Virus record (IMG/VR): IMGVR_UViG_3300031730_000001
Coordinates: 25,874 to 89,873 of that record
Length of the DNA: 64,000 nt
Strand: one strand, 5' to 3'
From: a virus
The notes beneath the pieces were generated by a model that worked only from the letters and a program-made list of their open reading frames with translations, made no database searches and had not been told where the DNA came from. Shown here piece after piece: positions 16,511-49,668 of the stretch; position 1 is the stretch's first letter, and each line of letters starts with the position of its first letter. Made by a program: the position numbers and the translations under genes.

Positions 16511-17551
16511 ATGAACACGCTTCCCGTCATCCGATCCACCGGGACCAGCCCCGACCGTCCAACCCAACGGGCCATCACGCTCCGCGGCAGGCCGCCCGCT
16601 TCGACCCCCGACGCACTGCTCGCGCTACTCGCTGAGGCCGGCGCCGGGCCCACCGTCCTGAAGGCCACCCGATCGTGGCTCGCCAAGCGCCCGAGTGGGC
16701 ACAGCAAGACCGCCTACGCCAAAGACGCCGCCTGGTGGCTCGCCTTCTGTGCCGCCAGTGACACCGACCCCACGCGCGCACGGGCCACCGACGCCGACGA
16801 CTACGAAACGGCGCTCCGCGAGACAGGCCTGGCCAAGTCAACTCGTGGGCGCCGCCTGGCTGCCGCGTCGAGCTGGTACACCTACCTGATCCGCGCGGAC
16901 GTCGCCGACCGGAACCCATTCGAGGGGATGGAGCGACCCTCAGTCTCCGCCGACGACTCACCCACCCGCGGACTCACCGCCGACCAGCTCGGCAGGCTGC
17001 TCAACCACGCCCGCGCTCGCGAGTCGACGCGCACCTATGCCCTGCTCGTCACGCTCGCCACCACCGCGGGTCGCATCGGCTCCGTCCTCGCTCTCACCGT
17101 AGGCAAGCTTGGCCACGACCAGGGTCACCGCGTCGCCGACCTGATCGTGAAGGGCGACAAGACCAAGCGCGTCGTCCTGGTCCCGCTCGCCGTCGAGGCC
17201 ATCGACCGCCACATGGACGGTCGACCCCTCCAGGACGACGACTATGTGTTCGCCACCAGTACCGGGCGGCCGATGGACGAACCGGCCGCCTTCCGTCTCG
17301 TTCGACGCGTAGCCGGGGCGGCAAGGCTTCCGCACGCCGACCAGTTGTCGCCCCACTCGCTGCGCCACTCCTACGCAACGGCGCTCCTGAGCAAGGGCGT
17401 CCCCCTCGCGGATGTGCAGGACGCCATGGGGCACGCAGACCCGCGCACCACTCGCCGCTACGACCGGGCCGCCGGGGCACTCGACCGCTCGCCGTCATAC
17501 AAGATGCAGGACGAGATCACGGCCGCGATGCGGGCTGCGGAGGGTGAGTAA
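16511..17551 (+). CDS. Tyrosine recombinase / integrase 1
   Basis: 346 residues. An N-terminal SAM-like DNA-binding domain (about 45-135) precedes the catalytic domain with Arg188 (TAGRIGSV), a Lys near 214-219 (KGDKTKR), His282 and Arg285 (HSLRHSYAT), His308 (GHADP) and Tyr317 (TTRRYDRA). The set is complete, so it should be active. The arrangement and the palindrome at its start recall XerC/D-like solitary recombinases. It is transcribed away from the phage late genes and is followed by a strong terminator, so it is a single-gene unit. Confidence 0.93.
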   Translation: MNTLPVIRSTGTSPDRPTQRAITLRGRPPASTPDALLALLAEAGAGPTVLKATRSWLAKRPSGHSKTAYAKDAAWWLAFCAASDTDPTRARATDADDYETALRETGLAKSTRGRRLAAASSWYTYLIRADVADRNPFEGMERPSVSADDSPTRGLTADQLGRLLNHARARESTRTYALLVTLATTAGRIGSVLALTVGKLGHDQGHRVADLIVKGDKTKRVVLVPLAVEAIDRHMDGRPLQDDDYVFATSTGRPMDEPAAFRLVRRVAGAARLPHADQLSPHSLRHSYATALLSKGVPLADVQDAMGHADPRTTRRYDRAAGALDRSPSYKMQDEITAAMRAAEGE

Positions 17552-22500: not shown

Positions 22501-22800
22501 TGGGAGTCTGGGAGACGGATTGGGAGACGATCACACTGGCGGAACCCAACGAAACACCCAACGAATCCGACGGTAGCCAGAGAGAAATGGGCTCTATGCT
22601 GGAGAGACGCCAGATCGTCGCAGGTAAGGAAGGCTCAACGAAGAGTCTGGGGCGACGCGGGGGATCGTCTCAGGCGGGCGGCGTGAGGGCCAGCGGACGG
22701 TCACGCGGCCCCACTTCCCGCCCAGCAGGACACGCGTAGAGGACTGATCCCGGAGTCGTCAGAGTGATCTTCATTCTTGGGCTTGGGAGATTTCTGGGAG
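22501..22800. other. Putative attachment region of integrase 2
   Basis: No gene is credible here. TGGGAG occurs at 22,501, 22,509, 22,521, 22,784 and 22,795, all in one direction and flanking a central segment, the arrangement of integrase arm sites. CCCAACGAA occurs at 22,545 and 22,557, with a related CAACGAA at 22,636. No tRNA was found, so the core cannot be named. The last TGGGAG copies lie within the 3' end of integrase 2. Confidence 0.4.
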
Positions 22801-24075
22801 ATCCACTTGCGGTCCGCGCTCCGACCGGCGCGGGCGGGGCTCCTCCCACTCCCGGTGGTGGTCCCTCACGCCCGCCGAGGCCTCCCACAGCTTCTGCAGA
22901 TCCGCCGCGATGTCCAGCTCCATCGGCAGCGTCGTGTGGCTGTAGGTCCCCTCAACTCCAGGGATAACGTGCCGCATCCGCTCCTCGACCGCAACCCGCG
23001 GGTGCTTCAGCTCATCGAGCCACACCTTCATGCTGTGGCGCAGCCCGTGCGGCACGATGTCCTCGATCCCCGCCACGGCCCTCATGTCCGGCAGTCGCGC
23101 AGGGCGGCCGAGCTTGTCCGGCGTCGCCGTGTGGCCGTCCACCCAGCGGCGCCAGATGTCCGTGTAGAAGTAGGCGCTCGTCGACATCTTCTTGCCGTTG
23201 GCCGAGGGGAACACCCAAGGCGACTTGTGCGAGGCCAGCACCTCTCCCAGTAGTTCGGCGAGGAACGGAGGGATGATCAGGCTTCCCGAGCTGCCGTACT
23301 TCGGATCCACCTGCGCCGGCTTGCCGCCCACGTACTGGTGCTGTTCCTCCACCAGCAGCCGGAAACCCTGCCCGTGGTCTTCGAGGATGAGGTGTTCGCG
23401 GCGCAGGCCGGCCGCCTCGGATATCCGGAGCCCGCAGTAGGCGATCGTGAGAACCAGGGCGTAGCCGACGATGCCGCGCATGGCGCGGGCGTTGCGGGCC
23501 AGCAGCAGGGCCTGGCGCGGGGTAGCAAGGACTGTGTCGTCCTTCTTCGGCTTGCCCTTGTACTTGCCGCGCCGACGGGCCTTCAGTGTGGGCACCGGGT
23601 TGTCGCCGATCACCTTCGAGGTGACGGCGTCGTCGAACATGACCCGCATCACCGACATGACGCTCTTTACGTACCGGGGCTTGTAGCGCTTGCGCAGCTG
23701 CTGCTCCCACGTCTTCACAGCGACCGTGGACACATCGGCCATGGCGGTCGGCTCCCACCTGGGGAGGATCACGGACCGGAGGCGTTGCCGGTACGTCTTG
23801 TCGCTGCGGTTGGCGAGCTCCACCGACTCGATCCACAGTTCGGACCAGTCGCCGACCGTGATGCGGCCGTCCTTCGGGTTGATGAACTTCTTGCGGCGCA
23901 CGTCGGTTTCGAGGCCGGCCGCATACTTCGTGGCGGCGTTGGCGCTGTAGAAGGGCTGCCCGAGATCGTCACGACTGACGGAGCCGTAGTTGATGCCGTC
24001 GGGCAGCAGGTAGCGCCCGCGGTATCGGTACTTGCGAGCCTTCTTGTCGTAGCCGCGCTTCTCTGGGTACGCCAT
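22771..24075 (-). CDS. int: Phage-type tyrosine integrase 2
   Basis: 434 residues. An arm-type N-terminus (RYRYRGRYLLPDG), SAM-like domain (about 70-170) and catalytic domain with Arg217 (CGLRISEAAGL), His343 and Arg346 (HGLRHSMKVW), His369 (MRHVIPG) and Tyr378 (EGTYSHTT). It integrates and, with a directionality factor, excises the element. The gene points toward the repeat region at 22.5-22.8 kb, which is the usual int-att layout in actinophages and AICEs. A likely excisionase is at 25,484. Confidence 0.93.
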   Translation of the reverse strand: MAYPEKRGYDKKARKYRYRGRYLLPDGINYGSVSRDDLGQPFYSANAATKYAAGLETDVRRKKFINPKDGRITVGDWSELWIESVELANRSDKTYRQRLRSVILPRWEPTAMADVSTVAVKTWEQQLRKRYKPRYVKSVMSVMRVMFDDAVTSKVIGDNPVPTLKARRRGKYKGKPKKDDTVLATPRQALLLARNARAMRGIVGYALVLTIAYCGLRISEAAGLRREHLILEDHGQGFRLLVEEQHQYVGGKPAQVDPKYGSSGSLIIPPFLAELLGEVLASHKSPWVFPSANGKKMSTSAYFYTDIWRRWVDGHTATPDKLGRPARLPDMRAVAGIEDIVPHGLRHSMKVWLDELKHPRVAVEERMRHVIPGVEGTYSHTTLPMELDIAADLQKLWEASAGVRDHHREWEEPRPRRSERGPQVDLPEISQAQE

Positions 24076-35136: not shown

Positions 35137-35516
35137 TCGTCACCGACTGGCGCCACCTCGCGGGCTGCCTCGACGAGGACCCCGAACTCTTCTTCCCCGT
35201 CGGCGACTCCGACCGCGCCCGCCGGCAAGCCGAGGACGCCAAACGGATCTGCCACACCTGCCCGGTCATCGAGCAGTGCGCCCAGTGGGCCATCGACAAC
35301 CGCATGGAAGCCGGCGTGTGGGGCGGCCTCGACGAAAACCAGCTTCGCAACACCCGCCGCCACCGCACCCCGTCACGGCGCACACCCGCCCGCTGCGGCA
35401 CCCGCCCCGGCTACAAACGCCACCACCGCGAAGGCACCCCCGTCTGCCAGCCCTGCAACGACGCCAACCGCGACTACGCCACCCAACGACTCAACAACCT
35501 CAAGGAAGCCGCCTGA
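35133..35516 (+). CDS. WhiB-family transcriptional regulator
   Basis: 127 residues. HLAGCLDEDPELFFPVGD, CHTCPVIEQCAQWAIDNR and GVWGGLDENQLRN are the standard WhiB signatures with four cysteines. The C-terminal part is basic and has further Cys/His (CGTRPGYKRHHREGTPVCQP). Tandem with the preceding WhiB-like gene. Actinophage WhiB proteins can alter host transcription or superinfection immunity. Confidence 0.9.
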   Translation: MIVTDWRHLAGCLDEDPELFFPVGDSDRARRQAEDAKRICHTCPVIEQCAQWAIDNRMEAGVWGGLDENQLRNTRRHRTPSRRTPARCGTRPGYKRHHREGTPVCQPCNDANRDYATQRLNNLKEAA

Positions 35517-37321
35517 TGGCCCGCAACGACAACGACGCGCTCACGGTCATGGACTGGTTCTGCGGTGCCGGCGGCTCCAGCCAGGGCATGCACTCCATCC
35601 CGAGCGTCCGCATGGAACGGGCAGCGAACCACTGGGAGCGGGCGATCGAGTCGCACGCCGCGAACTTCCCCACCGTCGACCACTACCGCGGCGACATCCG
35701 CGAAGCGCCGGTTGAGACGTGGCCCGTCACCGACATCTTCTGGGCCTCCCCGGAGTGCCCACAGTGGTCCAACGCCCGCGGCAAGAAGCGGGACTTCGAC
35801 GCCTCCCTCCAAGGCGACCTCTTCGACGGCTTCGGCCCGTCCGATGAAGTCGAGCGGTCCCGGGCGCTGATGGAGGAAGTCCCCATGTACCTACGCGGTG
35901 TTCAGGCGCGCGGTGGCCTCGTCAAGGCTGGCGTGGTCGAGAACGTGGTGGACGTCCGCGCCTGGGACCAGTGGGACCGGTGGATCGGCGAGATCAAGAA
36001 ACTCGGCTACGAGACCCGGGTCATCGCCCTCAACTCCATGCACGCCGACCCGCGCACCGTCCACAAGGCGCCGCAGAGCAGGGATCGCCTGTACGTGGCG
36101 TACTGGCACAAGAGCCTGGGCCGGACGCCCGACTGGGACAAGTGGCTCCGGCCGCGCGCCTGGTGCACCGGCTGCGACACCTGGGTGCAGGCCGTCCAGC
36201 GATTCAAGCAGCCCGGCCGGGACATGGGCCGCTACCGCCAGCAGTACGTGTACCGGTGCCCGAACGTGGCCTGCCGCAACCAGATCGTCGAGCCGGAGAC
36301 CCTGCCCGCCGCAGTCGCGATCGACTGGAACCTGCCCGGCCAGCGCATCGGCGACCGGACCAAGCCCCTCGCCGACAAGACGCTCGCCCGCATCCAGGCC
36401 GGCCTCGACAAGTTCGCCCGCCCGATCACGCTGGAGGCTGCGGGCAACACCTTCGAGCGGCGCCCCGGTGTCCGTACATGGCCGGTGGATGCTCCGCTGA
36501 CCACACAGACGACGACACCCACCAAGGCCGTGGCCTACGAGCCGTTCATGGTCCCCGCCGGTGGAACCTGGCGGAACGACCCGGTGAGCGTCATGGACCC
36601 GATGGCGTGCCGGACGACGCGCGAGAACGACGGCCTGGCGATACCGCCGCTGCTCATCCCCGTCGAAGGCAGGGATGGTAAGGAGCCCGCCTCGGCGAAC
36701 AACCCGCTGCGGACGCAGACCGCACGGAACGAGACCGGGCTGGCGTGGCTGCCGTTCATGGTGACGATGCGCGGCGGCGGCGACCAGCTCCGCGGCCGCT
36801 CCATCGGCGAGCCGGTCGGCACTGTGTCCGCCAACGGCAACCACCACGGTCTGGTCACCCCGAACCTGCCCGCCTTCCTCATGCGGAACAACACCCCGCG
36901 CGGCAACCCGGCCCAACTGTGCACGGGGGTCGACGAACCAGCGCGCACGCTGACCGCGGCCGGCCATCAGTCGCTGGTGACGTGGGAGCACCTGCTGGTC
37001 CCGTACTACGGCAAGGGCAACGCGCGCACGGTGTCCGAGCCGGTCGGCACCATGATGCCGACCGACAAGTACGCCCTCGTGCAGGGCGACGTCGACATCA
37101 ACGACGTGCTGTTCCGCATGTTGGAGCCCCACGAGATCGGCCGGGCGATGAGCTTCGCCGACGCGTACATCGTCCTCGGCTCGAAGCGCGAGCGCGTCCG
37201 CCAGTACGGCAACGCCGTCACCCCCAACTGCGCCGAGGTCATCGTCTCCGCCCTCGTCGAAGCGATCACCGGCGACGACATCGACCGGCATGCCGAGCCC
37301 GAAACGGCCCTCGCCGCGTGA
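35516..37321 (+). CDS. C5-cytosine DNA methyltransferase
   Basis: 601 residues. FCGAGGSSQG (SAM-binding motif I), SPECPQWS with the probable catalytic Cys81, ENV at 142-144, QSRDRLYV (motif VIII) and YGNAVTPN (motif X). A zinc-ribbon-like insert (CTGCD and CPNVACRN, about 220-265) and a long target-recognition region with repeated GEPVGTVSANG-type turns precede motif X, making it longer than the usual 330-450. It probably protects the element from host restriction. No cognate nuclease is adjacent. Confidence 0.9.
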   Translation: MARNDNDALTVMDWFCGAGGSSQGMHSIPSVRMERAANHWERAIESHAANFPTVDHYRGDIREAPVETWPVTDIFWASPECPQWSNARGKKRDFDASLQGDLFDGFGPSDEVERSRALMEEVPMYLRGVQARGGLVKAGVVENVVDVRAWDQWDRWIGEIKKLGYETRVIALNSMHADPRTVHKAPQSRDRLYVAYWHKSLGRTPDWDKWLRPRAWCTGCDTWVQAVQRFKQPGRDMGRYRQQYVYRCPNVACRNQIVEPETLPAAVAIDWNLPGQRIGDRTKPLADKTLARIQAGLDKFARPITLEAAGNTFERRPGVRTWPVDAPLTTQTTTPTKAVAYEPFMVPAGGTWRNDPVSVMDPMACRTTRENDGLAIPPLLIPVEGRDGKEPASANNPLRTQTARNETGLAWLPFMVTMRGGGDQLRGRSIGEPVGTVSANGNHHGLVTPNLPAFLMRNNTPRGNPAQLCTGVDEPARTLTAAGHQSLVTWEHLLVPYYGKGNARTVSEPVGTMMPTDKYALVQGDVDINDVLFRMLEPHEIGRAMSFADAYIVLGSKRERVRQYGNAVTPNCAEVIVSALVEAITGDDIDRHAEPETALAA

Positions 37322-37735: not shown

Positions 37736-38302
37736 ATGACGAGGGAGCCCTTGATTACGCCCAACAGGCGTACCGAAACGCGCCATGCCACACCAGGCAA
37801 CGCCTGCAATCACTTCCAGAAGTACGGGATGACCTGCGACGACTTCGACCGGTTGCTTGCCCGTGCAGCTGGCCGGTGCGAACTCTGCGAGACGCCCGAG
37901 GGGGAGACGCGACGCGGCGGCCTCGTCATCGATCACTTCGAAGGTGGCGGACTGTTCTTCGTCCGCGGACTGATCTGCGACCGCTGCAACTCGGTCATGT
38001 CGCGACACGACAGGTCGGCAGCGTGGGGGCCCTCTTCGCTGCCGTGGGCGGACAGGGCGCGCAGCTACCACCTCGCCGCGTTCGAGCAGCCCACGGCGGA
38101 GGAGTTCGAGCAGGCCGACCGGTACATCGCGGCGCGTCGGACCTACGGGGTCAAGGACCGCCTGTACGTCCCCGTCGCACAGCCGAGGACGCTCGTCGTC
38201 CGACTGGACCGGTCGATGACGGAGGCCGCCGACAAGTTGCACCGGCACCTCACCGACAGGCAGAGGGCCCGACTGGTCGAACTCCTCTCGAAGCCCAAGT
38301 AG
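37736..38302 (+). CDS. Endonuclease VII-like (HNH) nuclease
   Basis: 188 residues. HFQKYGMTCDDFDRLLARAA, CELCETPEG and VIDHFEG...LICDRCNSVM match the recombination endonuclease VII pattern: Zn-binding CxxC pairs around an HNH-type core that resolves branched DNA. The C-terminal part (DRSMTEAADKLHRHLTDRQR) is an unusual ribbon-helix-helix-like addition. Own leaderless promoter. Confidence 0.82.
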   Translation: MTREPLITPNRRTETRHATPGNACNHFQKYGMTCDDFDRLLARAAGRCELCETPEGETRRGGLVIDHFEGGGLFFVRGLICDRCNSVMSRHDRSAAWGPSSLPWADRARSYHLAAFEQPTAEEFEQADRYIAARRTYGVKDRLYVPVAQPRTLVVRLDRSMTEAADKLHRHLTDRQRARLVELLSKPK

Positions 38303-38322
38303 CGCGCCGGAAGCCGCCTTGA

Positions 38323-38347
38323 GGGCTCGACGCCCCTTACCGAGCCC
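38323..38347 (+). terminator. Short hairpin before replication gene
   Basis: GGGCTCG / CGAGCCC, 11-base loop. Same class as the other intergenic hairpins. Confidence 0.45.
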
Positions 38348-38379
38348 CCATCCAGCACTCTCCGAAGGACTTCAAACTC

Positions 38380-39486
38380 ATGGCTCGTGGCCACGGCCGG
38401 ATCCTCACCAGCATCTGGGAGGACGCCGACTTCCTCGCGCTCGAAGAGAGGGAGCAGCGCCTCTACCTGTTCCTCATCTCGCAGCCGAACCTGAACCACG
38501 CCGGCCTGCTCGACCTCACCCTGCGCCGCTGGTCCCGCAAGGCCCGCGGGCTCACCTCGGCCGAGCTGGAGAAGCTTCTCCAGTCACTGGAGGCCGCCCG
38601 GTTCATCGTCATGGATGACGACACCGAGGAACTGCTGATCCGGTCGTTCATCCGCAATGACGGCGTGTGGCGCATGCCGAAGGTGATGGGCGCGATGGTG
38701 TCCGGCGCACTGGAAATCTCGTCCAGGCGGCTTCAGTTGGCCCTGCTTGCCGAGGTCGACCGCATCCCCCTGGAGGAGTTGAGCGACGAACCGGCGAAGC
38801 TCCGCAACGGCGGCGAGGGCCCGTCGATCCGGCAGCAGGTTTCCGTCCATATCGACACCCTCCGCAAGGCGTTCGACAACCCGGAGCCGGACCCCACGGA
38901 AGGGGGTTCGGCAACCCCCTCTGAACCCCCTTCGGGAACCCCCTCCGATACCCAACCGGAACCCCCTGCCGAAGGGGGTCCGAAAGGCTCTACGCGCGGG
39001 CGCGCAGCCCTGCACGTGCACGCGGCCCCTGCCCCTGCCCCTGCCCCTGCCCCTGCCCCTGCCCCTGCCCCAACCACTCTTGTGGTTGGGGTGGGTAGTC
39101 AAGCCTCAGGTGGTAGCGCGCCGCGCACCTCGCCGCCTGACGGCGACGCCCCCATCGATCTCGATGGCGGATTCACCGTCAATGACGGCCTGCGTCGCTG
39201 GGCTCACCGCGACGGCTACGCCGACCGTGTCGACATCGACTACGAGACCGCCCAGTTCGTCAGCCACTTCCGCGGCAACTGCCAGCACCGCAGCAACTGG
39301 AACGAGGAGTGGCAGAAGTGGATCCGCCGCGCTCACAAGTGGGCGGTCGAGAACAAGCAGCGCCGCCCCTCCAACGTCATCGATCTTTCCTCCGGCCAGC
39401 CCCTTCCCGGCCCGGATACGAACCTCGCCGGCTGGGCCGCTGTCGCTGCTTCTTTCCCTTCCGAGACCTCTGAGGACTCCGCATGA
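38380..39486 (+). CDS. Replication initiator-like protein
   Basis: 368 residues. N-terminal domain (about 1-135) begins RILTSIWEDADFLALEEREQ, the pattern of actinophage DnaD/RepA-type replication proteins, with LLIRSFIRNDGVWRMPKVMG as the conserved part. A Pro/Gly-rich linker (about 165-250) contains an Ala-Pro repeat. The C-terminal domain has a second helix-rich region (DIDYETAQFVSHFRGNCQHR and NWNEEWQKWIRRAHKWA). The linker DNA holds iteron-like repeats, as in lambda O. The downstream coupled gene may be its partner. Confidence 0.72.
   Translation: MARGHGRILTSIWEDADFLALEEREQRLYLFLISQPNLNHAGLLDLTLRRWSRKARGLTSAELEKLLQSLEAARFIVMDDDTEELLIRSFIRNDGVWRMPKVMGAMVSGALEISSRRLQLALLAEVDRIPLEELSDEPAKLRNGGEGPSIRQQVSVHIDTLRKAFDNPEPDPTEGGSATPSEPPSGTPSDTQPEPPAEGGPKGSTRGRAALHVHAAPAPAPAPAPAPAPAPTTLVVGVGSQASGGSAPRTSPPDGDAPIDLDGGFTVNDGLRRWAHRDGYADRVDIDYETAQFVSHFRGNCQHRSNWNEEWQKWIRRAHKWAVENKQRRPSNVIDLSSGQPLPGPDTNLAGWAAVAASFPSETSEDSA
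38899..39091. repeat. Iteron-like repeats and hairpin (possible origin)
   Basis: AACCCCCT or its complement occurs five times between 38,901 and 38,967 and once with a mismatch (38,973). A (CCCTGC)n tract of about seven units follows (39,026-39,070), then a perfect 10-bp hairpin CCCCAACCAC / GTGGTTGGGG with loop TCTT at 39,068-39,091. All lie in the initiator gene. Confidence 0.5.
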
Positions 39487-40232
39487 ATCCGCGAGAAGCA
39501 GCTGAGCTGCTTGGCCATTGCGCCATGTTCGACAACCGAAAGCCCAGTCAGGGGGCCGCCGTTGCCTGGTCGGCCGCCCTGCATGACGTCCCTATGGACG
39601 ACGACGCCCGCGCGGCGGTGGCGATCTACTACTCGACGCCGCCGAAGGATCCGGACGGAAAGCTCTGGATTTTGCCGCATCACGTCCGCACCCTCCGGAC
39701 GAAGATCCGCTCTAAGCGGTTGGAGAACTTCCAGTACGAGCCCATCGCCGGCGAGACGGTCCCGGAGTACCTGGTTCGCCTTCGTGGCCAGACGCAGGCC
39801 ATCGCCTCCGGTGCGGTCGACCCGTCGACTGGCCGGCTGGCGATCGAGGGCGGCCCGTCCCGCGAGTTCATGGCCGAGCTGGAGGCCCGCGGCTGGCAGG
39901 GCGTCCGGACCGTGGACGGCGAGGACGCCGAGGAGCTGGGCGACTCGGTGCGCCGTTCGGGCCCGCTGGGTGTCGAGTGCCCTGCCTGCCATGCCGCGAT
40001 CGGAAAGCCGTGCAAGTCACCTGGCGGCACCGACAAGCAGCCGCTGGGGAAGCCGCGCTTGAAGCCGCACAGCGCCCGCTCCCGGGCTGCGGACGGCGTA
40101 CCGGAGGCCACGGCCGATGAGCGGGCGGCTGAGGAGCGGCGGATCCGGCAGATGTCCGCCGCGCATCTCGCCCGTGAGGCCGAGGAGATCCCGGACGCGC
40201 TGATCGTCGACGAGGAGGAGGCCGCCTCGTGA
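39483..40232 (+). CDS. Replication accessory protein with zinc finger
   Basis: 249 residues. The first 95 are helical (LLGHCAMFDNRKPSQGAAVA, ARAAVAIYYSTPPKD), the middle has a coiled region, and residues 160-200 carry CPACHAAIGKPC...HSAR, an actinophage zinc-finger pattern found again in the 40,969 protein. The ATG overlaps the initiator stop. A helicase-loader role is plausible by position only. Confidence 0.6.
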   Translation: MNPREAAELLGHCAMFDNRKPSQGAAVAWSAALHDVPMDDDARAAVAIYYSTPPKDPDGKLWILPHHVRTLRTKIRSKRLENFQYEPIAGETVPEYLVRLRGQTQAIASGAVDPSTGRLAIEGGPSREFMAELEARGWQGVRTVDGEDAEELGDSVRRSGPLGVECPACHAAIGKPCKSPGGTDKQPLGKPRLKPHSARSRAADGVPEATADERAAEERRIRQMSAAHLAREAEEIPDALIVDEEEAAS

Positions 40233-40552
40233 ACGACCACCAGATCCCGGAAGACGACGGCATTCAGGTCGATGACATCAAGGCGGTTCGTCGTGAGGGC
40301 CGCGAGGAGTTGCGGGCGTTGATGCGCTCGCAGATCGCGATCGGCAGGTCTCGCCGCGACGAGGCCCCGAAGCCGGTCCCACCCCCGGCGCCGCCCGGTC
40401 ACCGGCCTGGCGCCTGGCCGACGGGTTCCAGTCCGCCGGGTCCGCCGCCGGAGTGGTCGATCCCGAAGCCCGTCTGGGATGCGGCGGTCCGGCACTACCG
40501 CAACACCGAGTACCGACCCGACCAGCCGTGCGACTGCGGCAACTGCCCGTAG
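40229..40552 (+). CDS. Small proline-rich protein
   Basis: 107 residues, GTG start. An acidic helix (DDIKAVRREGREELRALMRS), a long Pro-rich stretch and a Cys-containing end (CDCGNCP). Coupled to the preceding gene. Unknown. Confidence 0.52.
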   Translation: MNDHQIPEDDGIQVDDIKAVRREGREELRALMRSQIAIGRSRRDEAPKPVPPPAPPGHRPGAWPTGSSPPGPPPEWSIPKPVWDAAVRHYRNTEYRPDQPCDCGNCP

Positions 40553-40573
40553 CCCGCCCGAAAGGAGAACCCC

Positions 40574-40948
40574 GTGGGAATCGACTTCTCGCACACCCAA
40601 GCCCAGTGGTCGTACACCGGCTTCGGCGCCTTCCGTCGTGCGATCGCCCTGTTTGAGGGCTTCGAGCTCGACGACATGGAGGGCTTCGGCGGCGACCGCG
40701 ACTGGTCCACCGTCGCCACCGACCTCGCGCCGCTGCTCAATCACTCCGACTGCGACGGCGAGATGACGCCCGACGAGTGCCGCCAGGTCGCCCCGCGCCT
40801 GCGGCAGGTGATCGACGAGCTGTGGCCTGCCGAGCGGGCCGTCTGGGAGACCGATCCGAGCGCGCACTACAACCGCCGCGCCGGTCTCGAACTCGCCGAC
40901 GGCATGGACGCCGCAGCCGCCGTCGACGAGCACCTGCAATTCCAGTGA
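40574..40948 (+). CDS. Conserved phage protein of unknown function
   Basis: 124 residues, GTG start after AAAGGAG. IDFSHTQAQWSYTGFGAFRR is the N-terminal signature of a Streptomyces family; the middle has an acidic loop (NHSDCDGEMTPDECRQ) that could bind calcium. Unknown. Confidence 0.6.
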   Translation: MGIDFSHTQAQWSYTGFGAFRRAIALFEGFELDDMEGFGGDRDWSTVATDLAPLLNHSDCDGEMTPDECRQVAPRLRQVIDELWPAERAVWETDPSAHYNRRAGLELADGMDAAAAVDEHLQFQ

Positions 40949-40968
40949 TCCACGCGAAGGAGACCCCG

Positions 40969-41274
40969 ATGACGATCCGTTACAGCGCCCCGATGCCCGT
41001 CGAACTGCGGCATTTCATGCGCGCCAAGCAGGACCCGGCCCGCGCCGTCGCTTGCCCGCACTGCGGGGTGGCCGCGCACAAGCCGTGCCGACTGCGCACC
41101 AACGGCCGCCTGCTGACGGAGCCGCACCCGCAGCGCCGGTCCGTGTGGGCGCAGGCCATCGCCTGCTGCCCCGCCTGCCAGGTCACGCCCGGCACGCCCT
41201 GCCACGAGGACGGCCGCGCCCGCGACACCGTCCATGCCCGCCGCTACACCGAAGCCGGGGAGACCGCAGCGTGA
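40969..41274 (+). CDS. Double zinc-finger protein
   Basis: 101 residues. Two copies of the actinophage finger: CPHCGVAAHKPC...PHPQR and CPACQVTPGTPC...VHARR. GAAGGAG precedes ATG 40,969; an upstream GTG at 40,945 overlaps the previous gene. Likely binds nucleic acid. Confidence 0.65.
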   Translation: MTIRYSAPMPVELRHFMRAKQDPARAVACPHCGVAAHKPCRLRTNGRLLTEPHPQRRSVWAQAIACCPACQVTPGTPCHEDGRARDTVHARRYTEAGETAA

Positions 41275-41588
41275 GCGCCATCTGCCGCATCGACGAGTGC
41301 ACGACCCCGCCCCGGCCCGGCCGCCGCCTGTGCAACAAGCATCAGGTTCGGGTCACCCGCCACGGCAACCCGGACTTCACCGAGTGGACGGTCGCCGACG
41401 GCTTCGACGTCGAACTCCTCGTCGCCGATCCCCGACCCGCCGAGGGGCTGACCCGGCTGGAGCGCGTGATGGTCGCCCGCGGGCTGACCGAACGCGACGT
41501 GCCGGCCGAGGAGATAGCCCGCATCGTCGGCGTCCACCCGCGCAGCGTCTACCGCTGGCGATCTGAGGGATTCCGGCAGGCCGCCTAA
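41271..41588 (+). CDS. Zinc-knuckle protein with C-terminal HTH
   Basis: 105 residues. CRIDECTTPPRPGRRLCNKH forms a Cys/His motif seen in phage HNH-like proteins, and EEIARIVGVHPRSVYRWRSE is a helix-turn-helix. Possibly a regulator. GTG start overlaps the preceding stop. Confidence 0.58.
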   Translation: MSAICRIDECTTPPRPGRRLCNKHQVRVTRHGNPDFTEWTVADGFDVELLVADPRPAEGLTRLERVMVARGLTERDVPAEEIARIVGVHPRSVYRWRSEGFRQAA

Positions 41589-41654
41589 GCCCCGCCACCC
41601 CCGCCCCGCACCGCGACAGCACCGCCGCCTGACCACCCACCGAAGGAGATCCGC

Positions 41655-42077
41655 ATGACCGAGACCGAGACCACACCCCGCCTCGCTACAGCCCTCACCG
41701 TCTGGCAGGCGTGGTGGGAGGACCACGACATGTGGGACGGCAACGAGATGTACCTCGACTTCGACACCGCCAAGACCCATGCCGCGTTCAGCTACGAGAC
41801 CGACGAGTACCCCGAGCCCGAGGACCGCGACGAGACCGTCCGGCCCGACTTCTCGTGGGAGTTCGGCTACGGCCAGTGGATGCTCCTCGACGGCGGCAAG
41901 GACACCCTCGTCCGCGTCTCCCGCCGATCCGTGTACCGCCCGGCGACCGAGCGGGAGGTTCAGCAGCAGGACGCGCTGATGGCTGCCGAGCGTGCCGCCC
42001 GGGTCGCCTACCCGCACTTGTCGACGCGCGAGGCGATGGCGGCCATGCAGCCGACAGGGCGGCCCACTGATGCCTGA
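41655..42077 (+). CDS. Small acidic protein of unknown function
   Basis: 140 residues. WQAWWEDHDMWDGNEMYLDF and DFSWEFGYGQWMLLDGGKD suggest a beta-rich Trp-rich fold. GAAGGAG before the ATG. Overlaps the next start. Unknown. Confidence 0.52.
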   Translation: MTETETTPRLATALTVWQAWWEDHDMWDGNEMYLDFDTAKTHAAFSYETDEYPEPEDRDETVRPDFSWEFGYGQWMLLDGGKDTLVRVSRRSVYRPATEREVQQQDALMAAERAARVAYPHLSTREAMAAMQPTGRPTDA

Positions 42078-42375
42078 CCGCACAACCCCCACCCCGCCTC
42101 CCCGCCGCCGCCAGTCGACCCGCAAGTACTTGACCCCGACCGCCGAGCGGATCATCGCCGACTGCTATCCGGGCCAGGTGCTGGCGACGGTTTTGGAGCG
42201 GGCGGTGCGTGCGATGGCGGTCCGGGACGGGCTGCTGACGGCGGCGACGGGTCGGCGTCGGGCGGGGCGCATCCCAGCCGTGAAGGCGCCGTCCGGCGGC
42301 CCCAGTTCGTCTCTGGCGGCCTCAGGGCCCGTCGAGGCCCCCCGCGCCCTCCCGGACGCTCCTGGCGACTCCTAG
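42070..42375 (+). CDS. Small basic protein, possible RHH
   Basis: 101 residues. TRKYLTPTAERIIADCYPGQ and VLATVLERAVRAMAVRDGLL look like a ribbon-helix-helix fold followed by a disordered tail. May be a small DNA-binding regulator of the following transporter-DpdA pair. Low certainty. Confidence 0.45.
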   Translation: MPDRTTPTPPPRRRQSTRKYLTPTAERIIADCYPGQVLATVLERAVRAMAVRDGLLTAATGRRRAGRIPAVKAPSGGPSSSLAASGPVEAPRALPDAPGDS

Positions 42376-42434
42376 GGCCGTTTACGGGCCTCGGCCCGGA
42401 TCTGAAACCGCAACCCACCGACAGGGGAACCGAC

Positions 42435-42962
42435 ATGACCATCCGCCGTACCGCCGTTGCCGCAACAACCCTCGCCGCCTACATCGCCACGATCCCCGCC
42501 GCGAACATGGCGGTCGCCCATTTCGGCGCCGTCCCGGTCGGCTTCGGGCTACTGGCCCCGGCCGGCGTGTACGCGGTCGGCATCGCCCTGGTGCTGCGGG
42601 ATCTCGCCCGTGAAGTGGCGGGCCGCGCCGCGGTGGCGGCTGCCATCATCGCTGGTGCGGCCCTCTCCTTCCTGCTGGCCACCCCAGCCCTGGCGCTCGC
42701 GTCCACCGTGGCGTTCGCGGTGTCGGAGATCCTTGACTTCGCCGTGTACGAGCCTCTCCGAAAGCGCGGTCTGCTGGCTGCGATGACCGCCTCGAACGCG
42801 GCGGGTCTCGCCGCGGACAGCCTGCTCTTCCTGTGGCTCGCCTTCGGGTCCCTCACGTTTCTGCCGGGCCAGATCCTCGGCAAGGCATGGATGACCGTTG
42901 CCGCAGTCGCCGTCATCGCGGCGTTCCGTCGGCGGGTGCGTGGCGGGGCGGTGACGGCGTGA
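42435..42962 (+). CDS. VUT family (YhhQ-like) precursor transporter
   Basis: 175 residues, five or six hydrophobic helices. The signature region with VAHFGAVPVGFGLLAPAGVY, VLRDLAREVAGRAA, ALASTVAFAVSEILDFAVYE and GLAADSLLFLWLAFGSLTFLPG matches the VUT/YhhQ family, importers of preQ0 or preQ1 for queuosine-type bases. Coupled (GTGA) to the DpdA-like gene, so the imported 7-deazapurine probably feeds that enzyme. RBS is weak (AGGGGAA). Confidence 0.85.
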   Translation: MTIRRTAVAATTLAAYIATIPAANMAVAHFGAVPVGFGLLAPAGVYAVGIALVLRDLAREVAGRAAVAAAIIAGAALSFLLATPALALASTVAFAVSEILDFAVYEPLRKRGLLAAMTASNAAGLAADSLLFLWLAFGSLTFLPGQILGKAWMTVAAVAVIAAFRRRVRGGAVTA

Positions 42963-44005
42963 CCGCGGCCCCCGACCTCGACGCCGTCTGGACGCTGGAG
43001 GACTGCGACTGCGCCATGCGGTTCCTGTGCGGTCACTGCGTCCACGACCGGTGCGAGGACTGCGGGGGCTGCTCCGGCGGCGGCCCATGCGTCTGCCCGT
43101 GCGGGATTGCCGAACGCGGCGCGTGGACGGCGATGTGGGACAGCCTGGTCGCCGACCTGTACCTGGGCACGCACATGACGTCGTGGCTGTGGGACAAGAC
43201 GCTGGAGAAACAGTTCAAGGGCGTCACGTTCTTCATCTCCCGCGTCCGGCTCGCCCCGCGACGCAGCCCTTTCCCGCGCGCCCTGCACCGTTACTGCATC
43301 GACTCCGGCGGCTTCTCCGAACTGCAGAAGTTCGGGCGCTGGAGGATCACCGCCGCCGAATACGTCGCCGAGATCCGCCGCTTCCTTGCCGAACTCGGCT
43401 ACGAGCTGTGCGTGTGGGTTGCCCCGCAGGACCTGATGTGCGAGGAGATCGTCATCCGTGGCGGCGTCGGCGCCCGTGGCCAGGTCTTCCACGGCACCCG
43501 CGAGCTGCGTGGCCTGAAGCCGGGAGATCCGGAACAGGATCTGACGACCGCGGTACGGATCCATCAGCGGCTCACCGTCGAGAACCTGGTCGAGCTTCGG
43601 AGACTCGCCCCAGAGATCAAGTTCATACCGGTGCTGCAAGGCAACCGCTTCGAGGACTACGTGCACTGCGACCAGTTGTACGCAGCGGCGGGTATCGACC
43701 TTGCTGCAGAGCCCGTCGTCGGTCTCGGCTCCGTCTGCCGTCGCCAAGCCACCAGCGAAATCCGGGAGATCGTCGAGCACTTCGCCGCCAAGGGCTACCG
43801 CCTGCACGGCTTCGGCGTGAAAACCCTCGGCCTCGCCCAGTACGCCGACGGGCTCGTCTCCGCGGACTCGATGGCCTGGTCCGAAGACGCCCGCCGCTCC
43901 GGCCCCCTGCCCGGTCACGCGCACAAAAACTGCGCCAACTGTCCCGACTGGGCGCACCGCTGGCACCGGCGCATCGTCCAGACCCACCTCACCCCCGCCC
44001 CGTGA
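42959..44005 (+). CDS. dpdA: DpdA-family 7-deazaguanine DNA transglycosylase
   Basis: 348 residues. The tRNA-guanine transglycosylase fold is marked by Asp115 in DSGGFSELQKFG, FIPVLQGNR (224-230), GLGSVCRR (255-262), LHGFGVK (283-288) and SADSMAW with Asp303, the presumed nucleophile. A Cys pair CANC (325-328) with nearby His gives the zinc site. These fit the DpdA proteins that insert 7-deazaguanine bases into phage DNA better than a tRNA enzyme. The N-terminus (CDCAM to CVCPCG, residues 16-48) is an unusually Cys-rich extension. Overlaps the transporter gene by 4 bases. Confidence 0.88.
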   Translation: MTAAPDLDAVWTLEDCDCAMRFLCGHCVHDRCEDCGGCSGGGPCVCPCGIAERGAWTAMWDSLVADLYLGTHMTSWLWDKTLEKQFKGVTFFISRVRLAPRRSPFPRALHRYCIDSGGFSELQKFGRWRITAAEYVAEIRRFLAELGYELCVWVAPQDLMCEEIVIRGGVGARGQVFHGTRELRGLKPGDPEQDLTTAVRIHQRLTVENLVELRRLAPEIKFIPVLQGNRFEDYVHCDQLYAAAGIDLAAEPVVGLGSVCRRQATSEIREIVEHFAAKGYRLHGFGVKTLGLAQYADGLVSADSMAWSEDARRSGPLPGHAHKNCANCPDWAHRWHRRIVQTHLTPAP

Positions 44006-44061
44006 CCCCCGCCCTGGCCGTCGTCTTCCTGGCGGCGGCCGGCCCCACCCGAAGGAGCCCC

Positions 44062-44328
44062 ATGACCACCGACCCGCAGGCCACTCTCGACCCGTTCGGG
44101 CCGCCTCTGCCAACTGCCGAGGAAGCCGCGACCACAGGGCGTATCGGCTGGAACCTCCGCTGCAACAACTGCGGCGGCTACGGCGCCACCTGGATCCCCG
44201 GCATGCGGCCGGGATGGGGTGCCCTCGCCCTCTGCAACCCGGACGCGAAGGCCCTTCAGGCCATGCAGCTCCGCCACTCCGCCGAGCTGAAGGCCCTGAC
44301 CGTCGTCAACTTCGAACAGGACCGGTGA
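44062..44328 (+). CDS. Small Cys-containing protein
   Basis: 88 residues. IGWNLRCNNCGGYGATWIPG contains one CxxC; ATG 44,062 with GAAGGAG is chosen though the frame extends to 44,002. Coupled to the next gene. Unknown. Confidence 0.55.
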   Translation: MTTDPQATLDPFGPPLPTAEEAATTGRIGWNLRCNNCGGYGATWIPGMRPGWGALALCNPDAKALQAMQLRHSAELKALTVVNFEQDR

Positions 44329-44516
44329 CCGCCGTGACCGACCCGCAGCCTGTCGTCTGGATCGACGGCGACCCGCTCATGGAAGCCATCGCCGCCGCCG
44401 TCTACCGGGAGGCTCGCGGCCTGCCCGAGGACGCCGTTCTCGCGGGGGACGCCCTGTGGTTCCACGTCCGCGACGACGAGGTCGTCATCGAGTTCGCGGT
44501 GGAGGTCCCGCAGTGA
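44325..44516 (+). CDS. Small protein of unknown function
   Basis: 63 residues, GTG start: DPLMEAIAAAVYREARGLPE and an acidic strand. Coupled. GTG 44,334 is another possible start. Confidence 0.48.
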   Translation: MTAVTDPQPVVWIDGDPLMEAIAAAVYREARGLPEDAVLAGDALWFHVRDDEVVIEFAVEVPQ

Positions 44517-44836
44517 CCACCGCGCAGCTCCTCGCTGAGTCCCTCGCCACGATCCCCGTCCTGCTGCGTGCGGGTGCGGTGTGGCTGCTCCTGCTGTGCG
44601 GGGTAGCGGGGCTGGCCGTGTACGCGGCGGGTGTCGTGGCGTGGTGCGGCTGCCGGTGGGTGTGGCAGGCCGTTCGCGGTATCTGGGCGCCCACTGGGGG
44701 GCCTGAGGGGGGCTCGGGGCTCCCGGGCGACCTCCGGGCGGCTCCTGAGCCCGCAGAGACGCTCTCAGGGCGTCCAGGGCCGAGCTGGGCGCGCGGCGAC
44801 ACCGACAACCAACCCGAGATTGGAGAAGCCGCATGA
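44513..44836 (+). CDS. Membrane protein with disordered tail
   Basis: 107 residues. One or two hydrophobic helices (about 15-45, AVWLLLLCGVAGLAVYAAGV) and a Pro/Gly-rich tail. GTG start overlapping the upstream stop. Unknown. Confidence 0.5.
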   Translation: MTTAQLLAESLATIPVLLRAGAVWLLLLCGVAGLAVYAAGVVAWCGCRWVWQAVRGIWAPTGGPEGGSGLPGDLRAAPEPAETLSGRPGPSWARGDTDNQPEIGEAA

Positions 44837-45039
44837 AATTCGCCTGCCAGAACTGCCGCCGCCCACTCCACTGGCTCGACGAAACGGGCTGGCTCCACGG
44901 CGAACTCCCGCAGTACGCCCACGAACCCATCACCTGCGAGCGCCCCGAACCAGTCTGCGAGTACAGCACCTGCAACCACGCCGACGGGCCCGACGCCTCC
45001 TGCACCTGCCGCTGCCACAACCCGAGGACCACACGATGA
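44833..45039 (+). CDS. Small Cys-rich protein
   Basis: 68 residues with eight cysteines, CQNC, CEYSTC and CTCRCH, so one or two zinc sites. Coupled. One of the cluster of zinc proteins at 44-49 kb. Confidence 0.55.
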   Translation: MKFACQNCRRPLHWLDETGWLHGELPQYAHEPITCERPEPVCEYSTCNHADGPDASCTCRCHNPRTTR

Positions 45040-45476
45040 CCGACAAGCCGTACCGACTACTCGTCACCGGGTCCCGCGACTGGACCGACGAGGAACTCAT
45101 CCGCCACCAACTCACCCGCGCATGGCTCACCGTCAAAGGCCCCTTCGTCGTCATCCACGGCGGATGCCCCACCGGCGCCGACTGGATGGCATCCGACTGG
45201 GTCGCCAACATGCTCGAAGCCGAGATGGGCGACGTCCGCGAAGAAGGACACCCGGCCCAGCGGCACCCGACTGAGGACTTCGGCCCGTGGCCAGGCGCCG
45301 GGCCCCGCCGCAACGCCCACATGGTCGGCCTCGGCGCGGACGCCTGCCTCGCCTTCATCGGCCCGTGCACCAAACCCAACTGCCGCCGCCCGCAACCCCA
45401 CGGCAGCCACGGCGCGAGCGGATGCGCAGACCTCGCCGAAGCCGCAGGCATCCCGACGAGGAGGTTCACCGCATGA
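45036..45476 (+). CDS. SLOG/YspA-type nucleotide-binding protein (DUF2493)
   Basis: 146 residues. YRLLVTGSRDWTDEELIRHQ, FVVIHGGCPTGADWMASDWV and the PGAGPRRNAHM region are the SLOG-fold signatures of the YspA/cpYpsA-related family (DUF2493), which bind nucleotides or ADP-ribose-like ligands. The role in phage is unknown; it could supply or recycle a nucleotide. Coupled to neighbours. Confidence 0.85.
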   Translation: MTDKPYRLLVTGSRDWTDEELIRHQLTRAWLTVKGPFVVIHGGCPTGADWMASDWVANMLEAEMGDVREEGHPAQRHPTEDFGPWPGAGPRRNAHMVGLGADACLAFIGPCTKPNCRRPQPHGSHGASGCADLAEAAGIPTRRFTA

Positions 45477-45829
45477 CCGACCTCGTGCGCGCCACATGCC
45501 CCGGCTGCGGCAACGACCGCCGAGTCACCGTCGCCGGAACCTTCGGCCGCCACCGCAAAGGCGGCATCACCTGCCCCGGCGCCGGACAACCCGCACCCGG
45601 CATCACCCCGCCCGAATCACACCGAGGCGCCACCGGTCTCACCGGACCGCCACCACCGGACGAACCTGCAGCAGGCCGATCCTGCGACGCAGGCAACTGC
45701 AACCGGCCCTCCATCGGATGGCGGCTCTTCCGAGGCCAACGCGAATGGCTTCCCGTCTGCGGCTTCTGCATGGACGGACCACCCGGACGCACCCGCATCC
45801 ACGACCCAGAGGACACCGACCATGCATGA
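45473..45829 (+). CDS. Small protein with Cys pairs
   Basis: 118 residues. An N-terminal CPGCGNDRR...CPGAG and a C-terminal CDAGNCNRP...CGFCMDG suggest two zinc sites. Coupled. Unknown. Confidence 0.52.
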   Translation: MTDLVRATCPGCGNDRRVTVAGTFGRHRKGGITCPGAGQPAPGITPPESHRGATGLTGPPPPDEPAAGRSCDAGNCNRPSIGWRLFRGQREWLPVCGFCMDGPPGRTRIHDPEDTDHA

Positions 45830-46403
45830 CCCGTTGACCGTCGCCTTCGAGATCCGCCGCCCGTGGCCCAAGGCCGTTGACTGGCGCGCCAAGCAGGCCG
45901 TCCGAGACGGCGTCCGCTGGAGGCTCGGCGCTCCCTACGCGGTGCTCGCCGGGCGCGGCCTCTACTTCCCCTGCATGATCACCGTCTGGCATCGGGACCC
46001 GTCCGGCCACGACGACACCACCTGCCGCAGCATGCGCTGGCAGTGGCACGTCCACCACTGGAAGATCCAGATCTCGCCGCTCCAACACCTCCGCCGACGA
46101 CTCCTCACCCGCTGCACGTGGTGCGGTGGCCGCTCGACCAAGGGTGACGCGGTCAACGTCTCCCACCAGTGGGACGGGCCGCGCGGGCGCTGGTGGCAGG
46201 GAGAACCCGGCCTGTTCCACCGGGACTGCTCAGCCATCAAGTCCGCGCACGCCACCTGCGTATGCGAGTGGCCCGTGCTGGAGCACGACACCTACGGCAA
46301 GTGCGCCCGCTGCGAACGGTCCCGATCCTTCAGCACCACGGACGAACACCTGCCGCGACTGCGGGAGCTGGCCGCGATTCCGCACGGCAGTCGTCAGCCG
46401 TGA
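45822..46403 (+). CDS. Conserved phage protein with zinc site
   Basis: 193 residues. Trp/His-rich middle (RWQWHVHHWKIQISPLQHLR), then CTWCGGRSTKGDAVNVSHQW and CVCEWPVLEHDTYGKCARCE as two zinc sites. Unknown; the pattern is seen in Streptomyces phages. Confidence 0.6.
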   Translation: MHDPLTVAFEIRRPWPKAVDWRAKQAVRDGVRWRLGAPYAVLAGRGLYFPCMITVWHRDPSGHDDTTCRSMRWQWHVHHWKIQISPLQHLRRRLLTRCTWCGGRSTKGDAVNVSHQWDGPRGRWWQGEPGLFHRDCSAIKSAHATCVCEWPVLEHDTYGKCARCERSRSFSTTDEHLPRLRELAAIPHGSRQP

Positions 46404-48587: not shown

Positions 48588-48847
48588 CCGACTGGACCCC
48601 GCCACCGCCCGGCGACCGGCGCGAGCAACTCCCGGCACATCTGCTCGCCCTCGTCAACATCCCGCCGTACACGTCGACCGCCTGCGAGATGGCGGGACTC
48701 CTCGACGCAGCCGCCGACGAGTACCAGGACCGGGCCGACGGGATCGCAGCCTGGATTGACCGGCTGCACTCCCGCTGCCGGCTCAACAACAAGTACACGG
48801 GCGCCAGTTGTGACTGCGCCTGCCACCGGGAAGGGCCCCGCCCGTGA
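48584..48847 (+). CDS. Small protein of unknown function
   Basis: 87 residues, GTG start. YTSTACEMAGLLDAAADEYQ and an end with CRLNNKYTGASCDCACHRE. Coupled to the Thg1-like gene. Unknown. Confidence 0.5.
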   Translation: MTDWTPPPPGDRREQLPAHLLALVNIPPYTSTACEMAGLLDAAADEYQDRADGIAAWIDRLHSRCRLNNKYTGASCDCACHREGPRP

Positions 48848-49668
48848 CCGACAAGACCGCGCTCGGCGACCGGATGAAGCGCTACGAGGCCGCCTATCGA
48901 TCCACTCTGCCGCGCCGCACGTACACGCTGCTCCGCGTCGACGGCCGGTCCTTCCACAGCTACCTGCGCGGCGCGGCCAAGCCGTTCGACGAGGCGTTCA
49001 TGGCCGACATGAACGCGGTCGCCGAAGCCCTCTGTGCGGAGATCACTGGCAGCGTGTTCGCCTACACGCAGTCCGACGAGATCAGCATCCTCGTCACCGA
49101 CTTCGCCAGCGAGCAGACCGAGCCGTGGTTCGGAGGGGTGGTTGCCAAGCAGCTCAGCATCTCCGCCGCACTCGCGACCGCCGTCCTCAACGAGCGGCGC
49201 CCGGGGGCGCGAGCTCTCTTCGACGCCCGCGTGTTCACCCTGTCCGACCCGGTGGAGGTGGCGAACTACTTCCTGTGGCGGCAACGCGACGCGGTCCGCA
49301 ACTCGATCTCGATGGCCGCCCAAGCCCGCTTCTCCCACAAGCGGCTGCACGGCGTGAGCAGCGGCGGCATGCAGGAACTGCTGTTCACCGAAGCCAGGAT
49401 CAACTGGAACGACTACCCCGGCGGCTGTAAACGCGGCCGGATCGCCGTCCGGCAGGTCGGGGAGCGGGCCGTCGAGTACGTCGACAAGCGCAGCAACGAG
49501 ACGGTGAACACCATCGCGGTCCGGTCGTGGTGGGAAACCAGCGCAGCCCCGCACTTCACCACCGAGCCGGGCTCGTGGCTGGCCCGCACAATCCCGGCGC
49601 TGCCGACTCTTCAGACGGCGCCCGCAGTCACCTGGACCTACACCAGCGACCCGCAGCCCGCGCGATGA
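48844..49668 (+). CDS. Thg1-like 3'-5' nucleotidyltransferase
   Basis: 274 residues. RVDGRSFHSY with Asp33, AYTQSDEISIL with Asp78 and Glu79 (metal-binding acids), KQLSISAALATA and ANYFLWRQRDAVRNSISMAA then FSHKRLHG are the Thg1/TLP signatures. Thg1 adds guanosine to tRNA-His; TLPs extend or repair tRNA 5' ends in reverse direction. In a phage it could mend tRNAs damaged by host defence nucleases or act in RNA repair. GTG start overlaps the previous stop; it is the last gene of the early operon. Confidence 0.92.
   Translation: MTDKTALGDRMKRYEAAYRSTLPRRTYTLLRVDGRSFHSYLRGAAKPFDEAFMADMNAVAEALCAEITGSVFAYTQSDEISILVTDFASEQTEPWFGGVVAKQLSISAALATAVLNERRPGARALFDARVFTLSDPVEVANYFLWRQRDAVRNSISMAAQARFSHKRLHGVSSGGMQELLFTEARINWNDYPGGCKRGRIAVRQVGERAVEYVDKRSNETVNTIAVRSWWETSAAPHFTTEPGSWLARTIPALPTLQTAPAVTWTYTSDPQPAR

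What the first reader, a model, noticed from the sequence alone, without database searches (positions are those of the whole stretch)
42435..44005. Coupled preQ0-type transporter and DpdA: minimal DNA 7-deazaguanine system
A VUT/YhhQ importer overlaps a DpdA-family transglycosylase and no biosynthesis genes (FolE, QueD, QueE, QueC) are seen here. The element could import a host or environmental 7-deazapurine and place it in its own DNA to evade restriction, alongside the C5 methyltransferase. In a Streptomyces element that also carries conjugation genes, this would protect transferred DNA as well.
Basis: partly seen in the sequence, partly recalled or inferred. Interest (0 to 1): 0.78.

Follow-up and report, generated by a model that had tools for sequence, protein, structure and literature searches.

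The report
Phage base-importer and DNA-base-swapper gene pair
A temperate phage, probably of Streptomyces, carries two overlapping genes, one resembling an importer of the modified base preQ0 and one resembling the enzyme that swaps such bases into DNA, and the same pairing recurs in very different phages, which suggests that many phages depend on imported bases to modify their DNA.

Summary
Window 42435-42962 encodes a VUT/YhhQ-family (PF02592) membrane protein and 42959-44005 a DpdA (PF23859). They overlap by four bases (GTGA). The 89,873-bp virus record holding the window has no match to QueC, QueD/PTPS, FolE or any radical-SAM (QueE) family. The DpdA model's best solved match is 7ui4, 'DNA preQ0 insertase DpdA'. 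Both genes are under purifying selection.

The pairing is not a local accident. A search of IMG/VR with the phage VUT profile alone gave 78 loci. In 76 of them a TGT-like transglycosylase of one of three divergent families lies next to VUT, in either order, usually with a 4-bp overlap, and none has preQ0 genes nearby. Transglycosylase loci carry either VUT (143) or preQ0 genes (11), rarely both (1). This refines the published statement that phage YhhQ shows 'no correlation' with phage groups. No tRNA TGT was found in 199 Streptomyces genomes, so tRNA queuosine salvage is unlikely.

Most likely the pair is a two-gene salvage module: VUT imports preQ0 and DpdA puts it into phage DNA, as protection from restriction. 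These three steps are inferred, not shown.

The parts
42435..42962 (+). VUT/YhhQ (COG1738, PF02592) membrane protein, 175 aa, predicted importer of preQ0 or a related 7-deazapurine
   Evidence: profile of phage relatives A2
42959..44005 (+). DpdA-family (PF23859, phrog_1279) transglycosylase, 348 aa, predicted to exchange guanine in DNA for the imported base
   Evidence: 40-sequence alignment with invariant D115-SGGF, D158, Q227-G, D303, C328 and nearly invariant C325, H322; AlphaFold2 pLDDT 87; best PDB match 7ui4 DpdA
42959..42962 (+). 4-bp GTGA overlap of VUT stop and DpdA start (translational coupling); same 4-bp overlap possible in 40 of 52 same-strand VUT-first DpdA pairs
   Evidence: sequence
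42959..43153 (+). about 65-residue Cys-rich N-terminal extension of this DpdA, absent from aligned close relatives; low confidence in the model (residues 1-38 pLDDT < 50)
35276..37321 (+). C5-cytosine DNA methyltransferase ORF (neighbouring modification gene; not part of the pair)
   Evidence: PF00145 E=3.5e-18

Best explanation
The pair is a two-gene salvage module for DNA modification. During infection or lysogeny the phage makes a VUT-family importer that brings preQ0 (or a close 7-deazapurine base) into a host that does not make it. The translationally coupled DpdA exchanges guanine in the phage's own DNA for that base. The modified DNA resists some host restriction enzymes. Shown here: gene identities, coupling, intact TGT-type active-site motifs, a fold closest to the known DNA preQ0 insertase, purifying selection, and recurrence of the pairing across divergent enzyme families. 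Inferred: the transported molecule, the direction of transport, DNA as the target, and protection as the benefit.
For: 76 of 78 phage loci found with the VUT profile alone have a TGT-like transglycosylase beside VUT: 18 DpdA, 23 of the StevieRay-gp54 type, 35 of the phrog_887 type, and none has QueC/QueE/QueD/FolE within the flanks. After dereplication at 90% identity, 50 of 52 clusters; at 60%, 19 of 19. Both gene orders occur, mostly with 4-bp overlaps. Reverse scans: VUT near 54 of 77 and 67 of 75 loci of the two other enzyme families. Either VUT (143) or preQ0 genes (11) accompany the enzyme, both in 1 (Fisher p=1.3e-4); the DpdA of L011 is followed by QueC and a radical-SAM gene instead of VUT. 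Distances of the two proteins correlate (Mantel r 0.48-0.59, p<=0.001). dN/dS 0.2-0.5 for both genes. Foldseek: 7ui4 'DNA preQ0 insertase DpdA' is first, before tRNA TGTs. Streptomyces: tRNA TGT 0/199, QueC 25/199, VUT above cut-off at 12 loci, 8 beside a DpdA-type enzyme and the other 4 in genomes with strong QueD/QueC on the same contig. Phage DpdA inserts preQ0 in DNA and YhhQ transports preQ0 in published work (PMC6884629, PMC5372724).
Against: No measurement of base content exists. Many DpdA loci have neither VUT nor preQ0 genes nearby (54 of 80 viral DpdA loci), so DpdA does not always need VUT; the DpdA-only phage Orion carries no modification at all (PMC6884629). Some phages carry both supply routes (CAjan; EC151, PMC8310023). 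The contig may be incomplete. VUT presence does not track absence of QueC in host genomes (strong QueC in 6 of 14 hosts with the pair versus 12 of 36 without VUT). Loci are not fully independent, so the p-values are indicative.
Confidence: 0.62

Rival explanations
1. The DpdA acts on tRNA: the pair gives the host or phage a queuosine-like tRNA modification during infection, as TGT plus importer does in Q-salvaging bacteria.
For: VUT-TGT fusions and clusters serve tRNA Q salvage in bacteria (PMC11130926; PMC5372724). The DpdA fold is shared with tRNA TGTs.
Against: The closest solved structure is the DNA preQ0 insertase, before tRNA TGTs; PF23859 is the DNA-type family. No canonical TGT in 199 Streptomyces or in the 14 host genomes with the pair, so no pre-existing tRNA-Q system to feed.
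Confidence: 0.1
2. The pair is active but its product serves another purpose than restriction evasion, such as packaging discrimination, marking phage DNA against host degradation, or blocking competing phages.
For: Some DNA 7-deazaguanines barely affect restriction enzymes (dADG in MED16, PMC8306585). The C5 methyltransferase of the same record could already give some protection.
Against: dPreQ0 and dG+ do block many restriction enzymes in vitro, and deletion of dpdA in CAjan removes the protection (PMC6884629).
Confidence: 0.15
3. VUT and DpdA are unrelated cargo that merely sit together, or DpdA is a non-working relic as suggested by unmodified Orion.
For: DpdA-only phages are common and Orion has no modification.
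Against: 76 of 78 adjacency with three enzyme families and both gene orders; purifying selection on both; invariant catalytic motifs; the pair is the best conserved segment shared with an otherwise dissimilar Streptomyces phage-plasmid.
Confidence: 0.07

Closest known systems
DpdA-only phages, 'third group' of Hutinet et al. 2019 (Orion, Salmonella phage 7-11)
   Same: DpdA with no FolE/QueD/QueE/QueC genes; the authors suggested host preQ0 or uptake of exogenous precursors (PMC6884629)
   Different: Here a VUT-family importer is translationally coupled to DpdA. The paper reported 'no correlation' of YhhQ with phage groups; this scan finds adjacency in 76 of 78 VUT loci
CAjan/EC151/Rosebush-type phages with full preQ0 pathway and DpdA
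   Same: DpdA puts preQ0 into phage DNA (CAjan, Rosebush); CAjan and EC151 also encode a preQ0 transporter
   Different: They synthesise preQ0; this phage has no biosynthesis gene
Bacterial dpd islands (dpdA-K)
   Same: DpdA-based 7-deazaguanine in DNA; YhhQ present in about 9% of islands (PMC11888242)
   Different: No dpdB/dpdC or restriction genes were noted next to this pair (not searched for specifically); those islands also act as restriction systems
YhhQ/COG1738 plus TGT queuosine salvage in bacteria
   Same: VUT importer paired with a base-exchange enzyme
   Different: Target there is tRNA; canonical TGT is absent from 199 of 199 Streptomyces genomes

Membership tests
DpdA DNA transglycosylase (PF23859) | Match to the curated family model above cut-off | tested here: met
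   237 bits against cut-off 27
DpdA DNA transglycosylase (PF23859) | TGT-type active-site motifs intact | tested here: met
   D115-SGGF, D158, Q227-G, D303 and C328 invariant in 40 sequences; their roles in TGT are from general knowledge
DpdA DNA transglycosylase (PF23859) | TGT/DpdA fold | tested here: met
   7ui4 first, E=1e-7, TM about 0.46
DpdA DNA transglycosylase (PF23859) | Inserts a 7-deazaguanine into DNA | not testable with these tools
   needs LC-MS/MS of DNA
VUT/YhhQ (COG1738) transporter | Family match | tested here: met
   PF02592 42.8 bits against 27.2; TIGR00697 42.9 against 50.95, so below that equivalog cut-off
VUT/YhhQ (COG1738) transporter | Transports preQ0 or preQ1 | not testable with these tools
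   published for E. coli YhhQ (PMC5372724), not for the phage protein
Phage preQ0 DNA modification pathway (CAjan/Rosebush type) | FolE, QueD, QueE, QueC encoded by the phage | tested here: not met
   no match in the 89,873-bp record
Bacterial dpd restriction island | dpdB/dpdC and dpdD-K neighbours | not tested
   no specific search for these genes was made; neighbouring ORFs scanned gave other families

The most novel reading that the evidence does not exclude
Importer plus transglycosylase is a general, repeatedly assembled 'salvage type' of phage DNA modification. Phages of hosts that neither make nor use queuosine would modify their genomes with a base released by other microbes, so their resistance to restriction would depend on community chemistry.
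Probability: 0.5. Interest if true: 0.82.

Novelty: new variant of a known kind. Interest (0 to 1): 0.62.

Why it matters
DpdA-only phages have been puzzling because their hosts may make no substrate: Orion is unmodified in M. smegmatis. A coupled importer offers a concrete answer for a subset of phages and makes a clear prediction: modification appears only when the base is in the medium. The association also links VUT to a compact phage family of unknown function (phrog_15826) and to phrog_887 as probable base-exchange enzymes, and it means laboratory phages grown without preQ0 may wrongly look unmodified. Ready test cases exist: Mycobacterium phages StevieRay, Bhagsy and Bunnies carry VUT beside an annotated 'DpdA-like' gene and grow on M. 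smegmatis, a genus reported to have none of the pathway genes (PMC6884629).

Tried and rejected
Conjugation reading: no relaxase or transfer system identified; FtsK-like protein only. Riboswitch upstream: no Rfam match at E<=1 in 38000-46000. Membership in the Streptomyces phage-plasmid lineage of NZ_CP046906: only VUT, DpdA and a few weakly similar genes shared. Idea that VUT compensates for hosts without QueC: not supported, QueC frequency similar in hosts with and without VUT. PDB sequence search gave no significant hit for DpdA or VUT, so fold comparison was used. Profile-profile alignment of DpdA with the other two enzyme families failed (no significant score), although those two match each other (94%, E=9e-8); the DpdA alignment used there held over-long rows, so that negative is weak. 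Foldseek of the phrog_15826 type gave generic TIM barrels first, with TGTs and 7ui4 behind at E about 2e-4 to 7e-4, so its TGT kinship rests mainly on colinear motifs. Two papers that may discuss phage YhhQ (MMBR 2024, NAR 2023) were not held, so prior reporting of the pairing cannot be excluded.

Full report
The observation. Window 42435-42962 encodes a 175-residue membrane protein of the VUT/YhhQ family (PF02592, E=9e-11; phrog_4899, E=3e-38), and 42959-44005 a 348-residue DpdA (PF23859, E=2e-70; phrog_1279). The stop codon of the first and start codon of the second share the four bases GTGA. The window is bases 25874-89873 of an 89,873-bp IMG/VR virus record. The whole record has no match to QueC, PTPS/QueD, GTP cyclohydrolase I or radical-SAM families. 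The search tool notes that such a record may be a fragment.

The element. It is a tailed temperate phage: terminase large subunit (closest Streptomyces phage Kromp, 65%), SPP1-type portal, tape measure, and two tyrosine integrases at 16511-17551 (+) and 22771-24075 (-). It also has RecT and a C5-cytosine methyltransferase. The Streptomyces host is an inference from the terminase and from the nearest DpdA relatives.

The enzyme. In 40 aligned relatives D115-SGGF, D158, Q227-G, D303 and C328 are invariant, and C325 and H322 nearly so. These are colinear with the TGT active-site and zinc motifs (general knowledge). The AlphaFold2 model (mean pLDDT 87) matches 7ui4, 'DNA preQ0 insertase DpdA', first, before many tRNA TGTs. 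This copy has a roughly 65-residue Cys-rich N-terminal extension that aligned close relatives lack. dN/dS against five relatives is 0.2-0.5 for both genes.

The pairing is general. A profile of six phage VUT proteins (A2) was used alone to scan IMG/VR. Of 78 new loci, 76 have a TGT-like transglycosylase beside VUT: 18 are DpdA as here, 23 are of the type of StevieRay gp54 (phrog_15826), and 35 are of the type of Pam5_30 (phrog_887). None has QueC, QueE, QueD or FolE within the flanks. Several loci are near-identical or come from contigs already seen. After dereplication at 90% VUT identity 50 of 52 clusters keep the partner, and at 60% 19 of 19. The two exceptions, L095 and L098, carry VUT alone. 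Order and spacing: VUT precedes DpdA in nearly all DpdA pairs; the phrog_887 type mostly precedes VUT; 4-bp overlaps dominate. Different orders and enzyme families suggest repeated assembly. In reference phages, 11 distinct genomes have a VUT relative. Ten have one of the three enzyme types within about 1.5 kb: phiLM21, RHph_N3_2, RHph_X2_30, Pam5, Aoka, StevieRay, Bhagsy, GreaseLightnin, Ksquared and Bunnies. The eleventh is an 8.8-kb unverified fecal scaffold.

Importer or synthesis. Scanning from the enzyme side, VUT lies in the flanks of 22 of 80 viral DpdA loci, 54 of 77 loci of the phrog_15826 type and 67 of 75 (68 with one that also has QueC) of the phrog_887 type. Pooled, VUT only 143, preQ0 genes only 11, both 1, neither 77 (Fisher p=1.3e-4). 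By family the test is significant for the second and third types (p=0.007, 0.002) but not for DpdA alone (p=0.57), where most loci have neither. In L011 the DpdA is followed by QueC and a radical-SAM gene in the place of an importer. CAjan and EC151 (PMC8310023) have both routes, so the exclusion is a tendency.

Hosts. No canonical TGT was found in 199 Streptomyces genomes or in 14 actinobacterial genomes that carry the pair. QueC occurs in 25 of 199, so preQ0 producers may exist among neighbours; one Streptomyces strain was reported to yield PreQ0 base (PMC4698589; the strain's genus from general knowledge). VUT passes its cut-off in 11 of 199 Streptomyces genomes, at 12 loci: 8 beside a DpdA-type enzyme, 4 on contigs with strong QueD and QueC matches, three of these within a few kb and one about 24 kb away. 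VUT in Streptomyces therefore appears only in 7-deazapurine contexts in this sample. Presence of VUT did not track lack of host QueC.

Mobility. The pair also lies on Streptomyces plasmid NZ_CP046906 (91,197 bp, circular), which has ParA/ParB, terminase, capsid and a conjugal transfer protein, and on NZ_CP134214. The first of these shares VUT (65%) and DpdA (62%) with the window but only a few weaker matches otherwise. Distances of VUT and its partner correlate within each family (Mantel r 0.48, 0.54, 0.59). Together this suggests that the pair moves as a unit.

Mechanism and literature. E. coli YhhQ is needed for preQ0 and preQ1 salvage (PMC5372724), and phage DpdA places preQ0 in DNA, with loss of restriction resistance when dpdA is deleted in CAjan (PMC6884629). 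The same paper found Orion, which has DpdA only and a host without pathway genes, unmodified, and stated that phage YhhQ showed no correlation with phage groups. The reading proposed here is that VUT supplies the base and DpdA inserts it into phage DNA. Supply is strongly supported by association; DNA as target is supported by family and fold; transport, chemical identity and protection are untested here. Two relevant papers could not be read, so earlier notice of the pairing is possible.

Noticed in passing
window 48844-49668 (+): Phage-encoded Thg1-like tRNA-His guanylyltransferase (PF04446, E=2e-21), unusual cargo close to the pair.
   Followed up: no
window 42959-43153: Cys-rich N-terminal extension (CDCAMRFLCGHCVHDRCEDCGGC...CVCPC) on this DpdA, absent in aligned close relatives; possible extra metal-binding segment.
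   Followed up: partly
L113:10480-11097 and relatives: phrog_15826 ('unknown function' in PHROGs), 527 relatives found in IMG/VR, looks like a compact TGT-like enzyme with colinear motifs and usually sits beside VUT.
   Followed up: partly
L249-L252 (Streptomyces genomes): Four Streptomyces VUT genes lie on contigs with strong QueD and QueC, three within a few kb: probable 7-deazapurine biosynthetic clusters with a transporter.
   Followed up: partly
NZ_CP046906.1 (L443, L444): Streptomyces 91-kb circular phage-plasmid with ParA/ParB, conjugal transfer protein, C5 methyltransferase, Ku, LexA and the VUT-DpdA pair.
   Followed up: partly
Streptomyces genomes: DpdA over the cut-off in 21 of 199 Streptomyces genomes, only 4 with VUT beside it; one genome has four copies, two of them near opposite ends of the chromosome. 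Substrate source of these DpdA-only loci is unclear.
   Followed up: no
window 16511-17551 (+) and 22771-24075 (-): Two different tyrosine integrases in one phage record.
   Followed up: no
L095, L098: Two close VUT relatives without any TGT-like partner in the held flanks, the only exceptions in the scan.
   Followed up: partly
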